Source: Piscicola geometra | Lineage: Eukaryota; Annelida; Clitellata; Hirudinida; Piscicolidae | Reading direction: 5' to 3' | Assembly: GCA_943735955.1 (NCBI GenBank) | Contig: OX030968.1 | Coordinates: 4,167,434-4,231,433, forward strand | Length of the DNA: 64,000 nt | The notes under the pieces: generated by a model | Databases searched by the model: none | Seen by the model: the letters and a program-made list of their open reading frames with translations, nothing else | Told to the model about the DNA's origin: nothing | Made by a program: the position numbers and the translations under genes | Shown: in pieces, positions 7,788 to 47,889 of the stretch | Position numbering within the stretch: position 1 is the stretch's first letter | Layout of the letters: the number at the start of each line of letters is the position of its first letter

Positions 7788-10700
7788 ATGGAACCATTAG
7801 ATCACTGTCAAAAACCACCTGTTGAGGCAGACATTTTCCAGGCTATCAAATCCGGGTTTGCTTTCCTTACATCAAATAAAATAAGCTACATCAATTGTAA
7901 TAATAGTAAAAATAATAATAATGACTTAGGCTGAAAATTTTTAATCGTTGCCCTAGCACCGTTTACCATTTGTCACTGCGAGAGTCGTTACACACTCTCA
8001 TACCCATCCACCCAATATACAATATATTATTTATTTATTACTATTAAATTCAAAAATTATAAACACTCATCATTTAATCAATTTGTATTAATCTTCAATT
8101 TCTACAACAGGAACATATCAGTAGTGGATCAAGTGCTACAGAAGAATGGCATTGAAGTCCTGAAGCAACTCGACCAACAGGGCCACACGCCAACCCACTG
8201 GGCATGCCTGGGTGGCAACATGGAGATCTTCAACCTCATCATCACGAAGGGGGCTCCGTGCAACACGCTGACCGAGGTGGAGATGGGGCAGAGACCGATC
8301 CACTGGGCAGCCCATCAAGGACACATTCCAGTTGTTCAAGCCCTTCTGCAGGTTCTTGATATCAATTTTAAATTCGAAGGTTAAAATCTTTCTTTTCAGG
8401 TTGATATTTCGATCTGATTATTTAAAAAATTTTATATAAAAAAACAATAATAATCCAATGACTATGTGACGAAAGAATAAATTGACAAAACCCCAAAGTT
8501 GGGAGTGGAGGTGGATGTGGGTGACTATGCCAAGAAGACTCCTCTTATAGCGGCTGCTCAGAACGGAAAGACCGCCATGGTTGCCTACCTCATCTCCCGC
8601 AAGGCCAACATGGTCTCGCATATTAATTATTTGTCCATTCACTTTAATGAATAATCATCACTCTTGTAGTTAATCATCATTTTATTAGTTAATGATTATT
8701 ATTTAAAATTTAACCATTACCAGTATATTCATCATCATTATCACCACCAGCATCACTACTATCATCATTATCATCACTACTTCCACCATTACCATCCCCA
8801 TCATCACAACCAGCATCACCATCATCATCAATACCATCATCATCATCATCACCACCATCATCATCAATACCACCACCACCATCATCATTACCACCATCAT
8901 CATCAATACCACCACCATCATCAATACCACCACCATCATCATCAATACCACCACCATCATCATCAATACCACCACCATCATCATCACCACCATCATCATC
9001 AATACCACCACCACCATCATCATTACCACCATCATCATCATCACCACCATCATCATCAATACCACCACCACCATCATCATTACCACCATCATCATCATCA
9101 CCACCATCATCATCAATACCTCCACCATCATCATCATTACCACCATCATCATCATCACCACCATCATCATCAATACCACCATCATCATCATCATTACCAC
9201 CATTATCATCATCACCACCAGCATCTTGTTGATAAAGATGGCGACTCCGCCTTGCACTGGGCCGCATACAATGGTGCGTGTTTAGGGTTCTTACTAATGT
9301 TTTGATTTGACGTCATCACAATCATCACCACCATCATCATCATTATCATCATCATTATCATCATCATCATCATCATTATCAAAATGATTTTTTTTGTATT
9401 CACATATATTGATTTTTGATAACACACCACCTCAAACTCTGTCTCTTCTACTACCCTTTTCTCTTTCTTTCTTTTTTTCTTTCTTTTTTTCTCATTTCCA
9501 CCACTCTTTCCTCCCATCCCTGCTTCAACGAACCACCAAGATTCCACCATAACTTTACAAATTTACTCTCACCACTACGACCATTCCACCATTTTATTTC
9601 CCCCCAAACATCCGATTCTTTTTAACTCACCAGTCCACTCACCCCCCTCCACCCACCTCCACACTTAATAACCACTCTCCACCTTCGGCTCGTTCCTCAA
9701 ACTACTAATCACTCCTTTCCTCATCGCACCACCACTGCCACTTATCCCCACATCACAAAGCCTCTACCCCCCCCCCCCCCCCAAACCAAAAATCTCTACC
9801 CCACCCACACACTTAACGCCCCTCCTCCCCTTTCCCACCCTCCAGGCCACAGTGAAACGATGCGTCTGCTGGTGCACCTGGGAGCCAGTACAGAGCTCAG
9901 GGACGCCTTCCAAATGACCCCCCTCCACATCGCTGCCTTGAGGGGGCATGTCGAGGCAGTCAGGGATCTGTGTGGCTTGGTGGGTGGATGGGGGGGGGCT
10001 TTATTGTGGGGAGGGAGGTGTGTCATCACTACCTCAACCATCATCACCACCATTGACACCATCATCACCACCATTATCATTATCATGACCATCATTATCA
10101 CCTATACCACCACCATCATAATCGCCACCATCATCATCATCATCATCACCATCATCATCATCACCATCACAACCATCATCATCACTACCACTACCATCAT
10201 CATCATCACCATCACAAACATCATCACCTACATCACCATCATCACCACCATCATCATCATCAAGGACAACGCCGACATGACGGCCAGAGACGTGAACAAT
10301 GAGACTCCGAAGATGTTGGCGAAGAGGAAAGGAAAGTTCAACGTGTGTGATTATAAGAGTTAATTGATTGATTAAGATCTAATTGATTAATTAAGATTTA
10401 ATTGATTGATTAAGATTTAATTGATTGATTAAGATCTAATTGATTAATTAAGATTTAATTGATTAATTAAGACTTAATTGATTAATTAAGATTTAATTGA
10501 TTGATTAAGATTTAATTGATTGATTAAGATCTAATTGATTAATTAAGATTTAATTGATTGATCAAGATTTAATTGATTGATTAAGACATAATTGATTGAT
10601 TAGGACTTAATTGATTGATTAAGATTTAATTGATTGATTAAGATTTAATTGATTGATTAAGATTTAATTGATCTCACATACATACATACTTACATACATA

Positions 10701-47889: not shown

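What the first reader, a model, noticed from the sequence alone, without database searches (positions are those of the whole stretch)
7856..47867. Introns with G/T repeats at the donor side and C/A repeats at the acceptor side
Across 35 introns of three genes (DHHC +, RBMS +, MTHFSD -), at least 13 have a G/T-rich tandem repeat near the donor and a complementary-type C/A-rich repeat near the acceptor: DHHC introns 5 and 11; RBMS 2, 4, 5, 6, 7 and 10; MTHFSD 5, 6, 8, 10 and 11. About 15 more have one arm in the expected place. The polarity follows the sense strand in genes of both orientations, so it is tied to transcription or splicing. The repeat units differ between introns (TG/CA, GTGG/CCAC, GATG/CATC, long minisatellites), so this is not one expanded family. 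Pairing of the two arms would fold each intron and bring its splice sites together. I recall that (GU)n/(AC)n introns in teleost fish were reported to splice by such end-bridging with less need for U2AF2; here it appears in an invertebrate-type genome with much longer and more varied arms.
Basis: partly seen in the sequence, partly recalled or inferred. Interest (0 to 1): 0.9.

Follow-up and report, generated by a model that had tools for sequence, protein, structure and literature searches.

The report
Splice-anchored polarised repeats in leech introns
In the fish leech Piscicola geometra, tandem repeats inside introns are mostly G/T-rich next to the start and C/A-rich next to the end of the intron; they look like expansions that begin at the splice sites rather than matched arms that fold each intron.

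Summary
The window comes from chromosome 14 of the fish leech Piscicola geometra (two scaffold lengths match the published assembly exactly). In detail: of 33 window introns modelled, 13 have both arms, 15 one, 5 none. It extends beyond the window: with 119 introns sampled from five other gene families, 120 of 128 introns of 150 nt or more have higher GC skew at the donor than at the acceptor side (P 9e-22). Tandem arrays are 56 G-type to 15 C-type in the donor half, 15 to 70 in the acceptor half. The pairing interpretation is not supported: own arms pair no better than swapped arms; arm strengths are uncorrelated; array co-occurrence within an intron about equals that with a neighbouring intron; arms flanking an exon pair as well as those of an intron. 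Arrays reach the splice sites about six times more often than random placement gives, and splice-site oligomers recur inside their own array. Best explanation: repeat growth seeded at splice sites and filtered by splicing. Bridging in a subset is not excluded.

The parts
7788..17875 (+). Ankyrin-DHHC palmitoyltransferase gene, 14 exons, 13 introns (D1-D13)
   Evidence: Exons chain into one open frame (phase at D7 unsettled, D9 acceptor 4 nt later there); Pfam Ank_2 1.4e-37 and DHHC 3.5e-27
20260..31670 (+). RBMS-like gene (two RRMs), 10 introns modelled (R1-R10; R7-R10 boundaries uncertain, gene ends approximate)
41676..47900 (-). MTHFSD-like gene, 10 introns modelled (M1-M10; 3' end of gene not determined)
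12895..15875 (+). Intron D9: 1.2-kb G/T minisatellite from donor +9, (ACT)n at acceptor
15959..16339 (+). Intron D10: both arms
21645..23944 (+). Intron R2: G-rich arm at donor; (TG)n and (AC)n side by side near the acceptor
25114..27681 (+). Intron R4: 2.0-kb GGAGGGTGGTTGAGTGGG-type array from donor +8, (CACC)n at acceptor; one of three introns with exceptional own pairing
27805..28354 (+). Intron R5: G-rich donor arm, weak acceptor arm; holds a degenerate copy of the preceding exon end near 28061-28100
28455..29482 (+). Intron R6: (GTGG) donor arm, (AC) acceptor arm
29611..30319 (+). Intron R7: (GATG) donor arm, (CATC) acceptor arm; true acceptor probably 9 nt further, by reading frame
30391..30892 (+). 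Intron R8 as modelled: (GATG)/(CATC); part of the acceptor arm may be His-rich coding sequence
30995..31347 (+). Intron R9 as modelled: both arms; boundaries uncertain
45128..45917 (-). Intron M5: both arms
44588..44945 (-). Intron M6: both arms
43833..44083 (-). Intron M8: donor GTGGGTGGGTGGGTGG array, CACT-type acceptor arm
43260..43713 (-). Intron M9: both arms, CACCCACC acceptor arm
41775..43078 (-). Intron M10: (TG)n donor arm, CCACCACAA-type acceptor array

Best explanation
Shown: tandem arrays in leech introns are polarised by splice site, abut the splice sites, and often contain that intron's own splice-site sequence as a repeated word; the two ends behave independently. Inferred: donor (GTGNGT-like) and acceptor (CCACAG-like) flanks, already G/T- and C/A-biased, act as seeds for slippage or unequal exchange in a genome prone to tandem-repeat growth, and splicing filters what may stay. 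Near the acceptor only AG-free, G-poor arrays are tolerated, because the first AG after the branch point is used; near the donor only arrays without acceptor- or branch-like sequence. C/A arrays thus fill the interval where the polypyrimidine tract would be. Complementarity of the two ends follows from the complementarity of GT-like and CA-like seeds and need not be used.
For: Array polarity, odds ratio 17.4, P 6e-15 (163 arrays in 90 of 152 introns; 7 neutral ones left out). 25 of 71 G-type arrays start within 10 nt of the donor (random placement 4.5, maximum 11 in 2000 runs); 28 of 85 C-type arrays end within 10 nt of the acceptor (random 4.6, maximum 13). Own donor octamer recurs exactly in the own array, at least 20 nt from the donor, in 6 of 34 introns (swapped 1.06, P 0.0002), hexamer 8 of 34 (swapped 3.36, P 0.006); acceptor hexamer 15 of 50 (swapped 7.3, P 0.0008), 14 of these from the 21 arrays within 10 nt of the acceptor. 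Whole-genome counts against the reversed pattern 276:93, 381:102 and 174:99. 62 array-free introns show a mild bias that could seed arrays (5': G 17, C 12; 3': G 8, C 23 percent). 46 acceptors with a C-type array within 30 nt: AG-free stretch median 153 nt against 42 in 82 other introns; T 11 against 25 percent at -3 to -25; YTNAY at -50 to -15 in 13 of 46 (shuffled 21.5), so branch points may lie upstream of the array (branch points not mapped). Arms independent. The sign of the skew flips inside each intron, which a transcription-wide mutation bias would not give (inference).
Against: Seeding and pure selection are not cleanly separated: an array growing in a bounded intron also ends at splice sites, and an array that includes the splice site will share its words. 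The seed word does not recur in acceptor arrays more than 10 nt away (1 of 29, swapped 2.45), and mean Hamming distance for the donor hexamer is only marginal (P 0.066). By distance the pattern is uneven (106-intron set): at 30-80 nt from the donor 5 G-type to 6 C-type; beyond 200 nt, 8 G to 1 C in the donor half, which a strictly local filter would not predict, but 6 G to 4 C in the acceptor half. No relative was compared, so ancestral array-free introns were not seen. C-poverty of the donor side has no demonstrated splicing reason.
Confidence: 0.58

Rival explanations
1. Intron bridging (the reader's reading, as reported for fish (AC)n/(GT)n introns): the G/U arm pairs with the C/A arm of the same intron and brings splice sites together, lessening the need for U2AF2.
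For: Polarity is correct for it. 33 introns with both arms would pair with mean -40.3 kcal/mol. C-array acceptors lack a U-rich tract. Raw array co-occurrence odds ratio 3.6, P 0.0025, still z 2.53 after adjusting for non-array length but z 1.33 for total length. Weak k-mer and tail excess. Proximity and order of transcription could make unspecific complementarity enough, so the swap test alone cannot exclude it.
Against: Own arms no better than swapped and hardly better than mononucleotide-shuffled arms (-19.07 against -18.74). Arm strengths uncorrelated; 2x2 of 79 introns of 230 nt or more: both 28, donor only 12, acceptor only 29, none 10, P 0.80; length-adjusted correlation is even negative (r -0.23, P 0.008). 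P(C array given G array) 0.57 in the own and 0.59 in a neighbouring intron at 30 nt; 0.33 and 0.27 at 10 nt, 0.68 and 0.69 at 60 nt, 0.69 and 0.68 at 100 nt. Exon-flanking arms pair at least as well (-24.0 over a median 131-nt exon against -21.3 over a 308-nt intron, 64 exons; stronger than the own intron in 35 and 38 of 64), so generic pairing would loop out exons equally.
Confidence: 0.15
2. The arms are separate splicing enhancers kept by selection: G- or GU-rich binding sites near the donor (hnRNP H/F, CELF, TDP-43 type) and CA- or C-rich sites near the acceptor (hnRNP L, PCBP type), acting independently.
For: Explains position, polarity and independence of the arms. In human, G4 motifs are enriched at 5' splice sites, more on the non-template strand (5.56- against 2.38-fold), though another passage of the same paper puts the larger strand difference at the 3' side (passages of PMC9065059). 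Factor names are recalled.
Against: Arrays of up to about 2 to 3 kb and many different units exceed what a binding site needs. 11 of 31 window and 38 of 97 genome introns of 150 nt or more have no positive donor skew. No binding or expression data.
Confidence: 0.2
3. Strand asymmetry from transcription (R-loops, transcription-coupled repair).
For: Polarity is relative to transcription.
Against: The sign reverses within each intron and hence again across each exon, whereas such a bias has one sign along a transcription unit (inference).
Confidence: 0.03
4. The introns derive from inserted elements with terminal inverted repeats (introner- or MITE-like), or from inverted duplications of one end.
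For: Ends are roughly complementary in many introns.
Against: No significant excess of shared 10- or 12-mers between own ends (100-nt halves 13 of 128 against 9.7, P 0.15, and 4 against 3.2, P 0.39; 400-nt halves 21 against 16.1, P 0.10, and 6 against 5.0, P 0.39); units differ from intron to intron.
Confidence: 0.02

Closest known systems
(AC)n/(GT)n bridged introns of fish and lamprey (Lin et al. 2016, Genome Res 26:12; not held; described in the review PMC7404189, passages seen; U2AF2 details recalled)
   Same: G/U-rich repeats at the donor side and C/A-rich at the acceptor side on the sense strand; acceptors with few U.
   Different: Leech; arrays of many units up to about 2 to 3 kb; no intron of 152 has (GT)6 in the first and (AC)6 in the last 150 nt; co-occurrence of the arms is not intron-specific.
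Splicing-coupled strand asymmetry of introns (Touchon et al. 2004; not held; cited in the review PMC10030826, passages seen)
   Same: Nucleotide skews tied to splice sites. The review states that human and mouse introns have more G than C and more T than A.
   Different: Here carried by tandem arrays over hundreds of bases, with sign reversal between the intron ends.
G-quadruplex and short-tandem-repeat enrichment at human splice junctions (PMC9065059, passages seen)
   Same: G-rich motifs and short tandem repeats near splice sites, with strand bias.
   Different: No C/A-array counterpart at acceptors in the passages seen; in this sample G4 motifs occur in the first 300 nt of only 11 of 152 introns (last 300 nt: 5).
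Introns with distant branch points and long AG exclusion zones (recalled)
   Same: Long AG-free stretch before the acceptor.
   Different: Here the stretch is a C/A tandem array; branch points not mapped.

Membership tests
(AC)n/(GT)n bridged introns | GT repeat at donor side and AC repeat at acceptor side, not the reverse | tested here: met
   (GT)6 in first 150 nt: 4; (AC)6 in last 150 nt: 8; reverse 0 and 0, of 152 introns. For arrays of any unit it is a strong bias with exceptions, 56:15 and 15:70
(AC)n/(GT)n bridged introns | Both dinucleotide arms in the same intron | tested here: not met
   0 of 152 introns within 150 nt of the ends; with any-unit arrays within 30 nt, 18 of 152, but about as with a neighbouring intron
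(AC)n/(GT)n bridged introns | End-to-end pairing stronger than expected | tested here: not met
   Own against swapped arms P 0.17, length-matched P 0.53
(AC)n/(GT)n bridged introns | Splicing independent of U2AF2 | not testable with these tools
   Only indirect: T 11 percent at -3 to -25 of C-array acceptors; a search for the U2AF2 family did not complete
Splicing-coupled strand asymmetry | Skew changes sign or size at splice sites relative to the sense strand | tested here: met
   120 of 128 introns; mean skew +0.26 and -0.55
Introner or TIR-derived introns | Complementary inverted ends within an intron | tested here: not met
   No significant excess of complementary 10- or 12-mers between own ends
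Introner or TIR-derived introns | One sequence family shared among introns, with target-site duplications | not tested
   Repeat units differ from intron to intron, but no family search or target-site search was made

The most novel reading that the evidence does not exclude
In this leech a large share of long introns uses acceptors without a U-rich tract, where G-free C/A tandem arrays of tens to thousands of bases, and G/U arrays at the donor, have replaced the usual signals; unspecific co-transcriptional pairing of the nearest G/U and C/A arms then helps to define introns (or loops out exons into circular RNAs) with little need for U2AF2, so that fast-changing satellites serve as splicing signals.
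Probability: 0.15. Interest if true: 0.85.

Novelty: new variant of a known kind. Interest (0 to 1): 0.55.

Why it matters
It shows an animal genome in which intronic tandem repeats are sorted by splice site with strong polarity, and a natural collection of acceptors lacking a U-rich tract. This makes testable whether splice sites seed repeat growth, how much repeat a spliceosome tolerates on each side, and whether complementary intron ends are used or only a by-product. It also warns that GT-donor and CA-acceptor complementarity in other genomes needs an arm-swap and a neighbour control before it is read as a bridge. Repeat-filled introns may also contribute to the low BUSCO score of this assembly (74.2 percent, PMC11134150; inference).

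Tried and rejected
Matched-arm pairing: tested with 100-nt arms (n=63), 60-nt arms (n=128), subsets (uncertain models removed, window only, genome only, 300 nt or more, both arms present with and without R8; P 0.15 to 0.53), and exact k-mers. Co-occurrence looked real at first (odds ratio 3.6, P 0.0025) but was matched by neighbouring introns ('neighbouring' means the next kept intron of the same gene within 6 kb, not always the directly adjacent one). Transcription-wide mutation bias rejected by sign reversal. Inverted duplication or TIR origin without support in k-mers.

Literature: the listings (capped) showed no paper that I recognised, from title and start of abstract, as describing this pattern in a leech or another invertebrate; one search found none at all. 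The library lacks most subscription papers. Touchon 2004 and Lin 2016 are not held, so nothing about their details is from reading.

Sampling limits and rows dropped: genome introns come from hand-chosen loci with adjacent exon matches of five families; the kinase list was itself cut, 4 kinesin loci and 12 dynein loci were fetched, and the PF12777 matches were not used, all for lack of letters. Introns over 6 kb could not enter. Of 138 adjacent-exon pairs, 6 gave no splice call and 13 were dropped for a residue mismatch above 3 or a score of -4 or less. 24 of 152 introns, under 150 nt, were left out of the arm tests.

Two numbers were mended on checking: window introns without positive donor skew are 11 of 31 (not 10), and the assembly match is exact for two scaffolds only.

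Full report
What the window is. The search of the own genome placed the window at C14:4167434-4231433 of an assembly held as 171,024,195 bp in 66 contigs. C7 (9,301,023 bp) and C16 (6,573,335 bp) equal the N50 and N90 of the fish leech Piscicola geometra assembly wrPisGeom1.1, and the other large contigs seen agree with its chromosome table to within about 0.02 Mb (genome report section of PMC11134150). The published total (171,095,250 bp, 69 scaffolds) and longest scaffold (16,636,273 bp; C1 here 16,619,467) are slightly larger, so the held copy is not identical throughout. The closest named relative of a window TFIIS protein is from the leech Helobdella robusta (52 percent). I take the window as chromosome 14 of P. 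geometra.

Gene models. I modelled 13 introns of an ankyrin-DHHC gene, 10 of an RBMS-like gene and 10 of an MTHFSD-like gene. The MTHFSD model is open through 11 exons and the RBMS model keeps the expected frame through its first seven exons; the DHHC model can be chained in one frame, with the phase at D7 unsettled. Pfam finds ankyrin and DHHC, RRM, and a sub-threshold 5-FTHF cyclo-ligase match. Acceptors of R7 to R10 are uncertain.

The observation. In the 33 window introns, 13 have both arms, 5 only the donor arm, 10 only the acceptor arm and 5 neither. If the arms were independent, 18/33 times 23/33 gives 12.5 introns with both.

Beyond the window. Adjacent exons of myosin, kinase, DHHC, dynein and kinesin genes (matches; letters) gave 138 exon pairs, 132 with a splice call, 119 kept. 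In introns of 150 nt or more the donor side has higher GC skew in 120 of 128 (window 30 of 31, genome 90 of 97; Wilcoxon P 9e-22; means +0.26 and -0.55), on both genomic strands (61 genome introns). Taken singly, the donor side is G-skewed in 79 and the acceptor side C-skewed in 109 of 128. TRF found arrays in 90 of 152 introns: donor half 56 G-type, 15 C-type and 4 neutral, acceptor half 15, 70 and 3 (odds ratio 17.4, P 6e-15). Arrays make up 60 percent of window intron bases and 34 percent of the genome sample (median per genome intron 7 percent). Without any gene model, whole-genome counts against the reversed pattern are 276:93 for MAG followed by (GT)8G, 381:102 for (AC)8 followed by AGRT and 174:99 for MAG followed by (GTGG)n; some of the hits and of the control hits are clustered local duplicates.

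Pairing. RNA duplex energies between own arms were compared with arms from other introns. With 100-nt arms, 63 introns: own -36.7, permuted -36.0, P 0.35. With 60-nt arms, 128 introns: own -19.07, permuted -18.33 (sd 0.75), P 0.17; permuted within length quartiles -19.13, P 0.53; mononucleotide-shuffled own arms -18.74. In the 33 introns with both arms: own -40.3, permuted -39.4, P 0.30. So the arms can pair strongly, but donor arms pair about equally well with acceptor arms of other introns. Three introns (R4, R8 and one kinesin intron) stand out (residual below -30 in 3, expected 0.74, P 0.035), and 8-mer sharing in 400-nt halves is 61 of 128 against 52.0 (P 0.04); the other nine k-mer comparisons gave P 0.056 to 0.39, each leaning towards the own intron. 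A small excess of matched units is therefore possible.

Co-occurrence. The composition-based arms are uncorrelated (rho -0.10, P 0.26, n=128; 2x2 of 79 introns of 230 nt or more 28/12/29/10, P 0.80; length-adjusted r -0.23, P 0.008). Arrays within 30 nt of both ends co-occur (18 of 152, odds ratio 3.6, P 0.0025; in introns of 230, 300 and 400 nt or more P 0.15, 0.09 and 0.13); in logistic fits z is 2.53 with non-array length and 1.33 with total length as covariate. But among 126 introns with neighbours the chance of a C-type acceptor array given a G-type donor array is 0.57 for the own intron and 0.59 for a neighbouring intron; at 10 nt 0.33 and 0.27, at 60 nt 0.68 and 0.69, at 100 nt 0.69 and 0.68. 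Repeat-rich genes, not matched arms, are the simpler account. For 64 exons flanked by two sampled introns, the arms across the exon pair at -24.0 over a median exon of 131 nt and those of the introns at -21.3 over 308 nt; donor arm upstream with acceptor arm downstream, which would skip the exon, -22.4. Unspecific pairing would loop out exons as readily as introns.

Anchoring. 25 of 71 G-type arrays begin within 10 nt of the donor (random placement 4.5) and 28 of 85 C-type arrays end within 10 nt of the acceptor (random 4.6). The own donor octamer is found again inside the own array, at least 20 nt from the donor, in 6 of 34 introns (swapped 1.06, P 0.0002; hexamer 8 against 3.36, P 0.006), and the own acceptor hexamer in 15 of 50 (swapped 7.3, P 0.0008), the latter from arrays within 10 nt of the acceptor (14 of 21, swapped 5.6) and not from those further off (1 of 29, swapped 2.45). 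In such introns the splice site is a unit of the array beside it. The 62 introns without arrays show the same bias mildly. By distance the polarity is strongest within 30 nt of the splice sites and uneven further away (106-intron set).

The acceptors. Of 152 introns, 46 have a C-type array within 30 nt of the acceptor. Their AG-free stretch has a median of 153 nt (42 in 82 other introns), T is 11 percent at -3 to -25 (25 in the others), and YTNAY at -50 to -15 is found in 13 of 46 (21.5 in shuffles). They lack a U-rich tract and may lack a near branch point. Whether U2AF2 is dispensable there cannot be said; the search for its family did not complete.

Mechanism. I think most likely that splice-site flanks seed tandem growth and that splicing keeps only arrays that are AG-free before the acceptor and free of acceptor-like sequence after the donor. 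Shown: polarity, anchoring, shared words, independence of the arms. Inferred: direction of growth and the filter. A pure filter with exon-bounded growth, or positive selection for protein-binding sites, fits nearly as well. Bridging is not excluded for a subset, because proximity could make unspecific complementarity enough.

Relation to what is known. The review PMC7404189 (passages) describes AC- and GT-rich tracts bridging introns in fish and lamprey; the primary paper is not held. The leech introns share the polarity but not the dinucleotide pair in one intron (0 of 152) nor intron-specific co-occurrence. Strand asymmetries relative to splice sites are known (PMC10030826, passages), as is G4 and short-tandem-repeat enrichment at human splice junctions (PMC9065059, passages). 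Searches listed nothing that I recognised as this pattern in an invertebrate, in a library that lacks most subscription papers.

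Noticed in passing
window 1-1258, 1634-2288, 4383-4646: A 16-bp minisatellite (GGATAAAAAGTCTTCA) at 1-1258 is followed at 1634-2288 by an array of the inverted type, with a further related block at 4383-4646.
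   Followed up: no
window 6388-7164 (-): TFIIS (TCEA)-like open frame of 259 aa without intron; best match 81 percent identical to an unnamed protein, 52 percent to Helobdella robusta.
   Followed up: partly
window 19224-19478 (-): Ubiquitin-like open reading frame without intron, between the DHHC and RBMS genes (seen by eye).
   Followed up: no
window 28061-28100: Degenerate copy of the end of the preceding RBMS exon with its donor inside intron R5, possibly a dead tandem exon (seen by eye).
   Followed up: no
window 45128-45190 (-): CCCTAA-type (telomere-like) repeats in the acceptor arm of intron M5 (seen by eye).
   Followed up: no
window 41054-41263 (+): Open frame resembling the C-terminus of an hAT-type transposase (recalled resemblance, not tested).
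   Followed up: no
G000:C33:71565-73751: A whole myosin head (model positions 2-679) in one open frame without introns, while the other myosin matches are exon-sized; possibly foreign DNA in the assembly.
   Followed up: no
L015:8736-8817 (+): A tRNA-Ser gene (anticodon AGA, ARAGORN) lies inside a myosin intron (G000:C2:10597405-10597957), on the strand opposite to the myosin gene.
   Followed up: partly
window 29483-29610 (+) and 43079-43259 (-): Coding runs of His (CAT)n in the RBMS exon and of Gly (GGT)n in the MTHFSD exon resemble the intronic arrays, so repeat growth may also reach exons.
   Followed up: no
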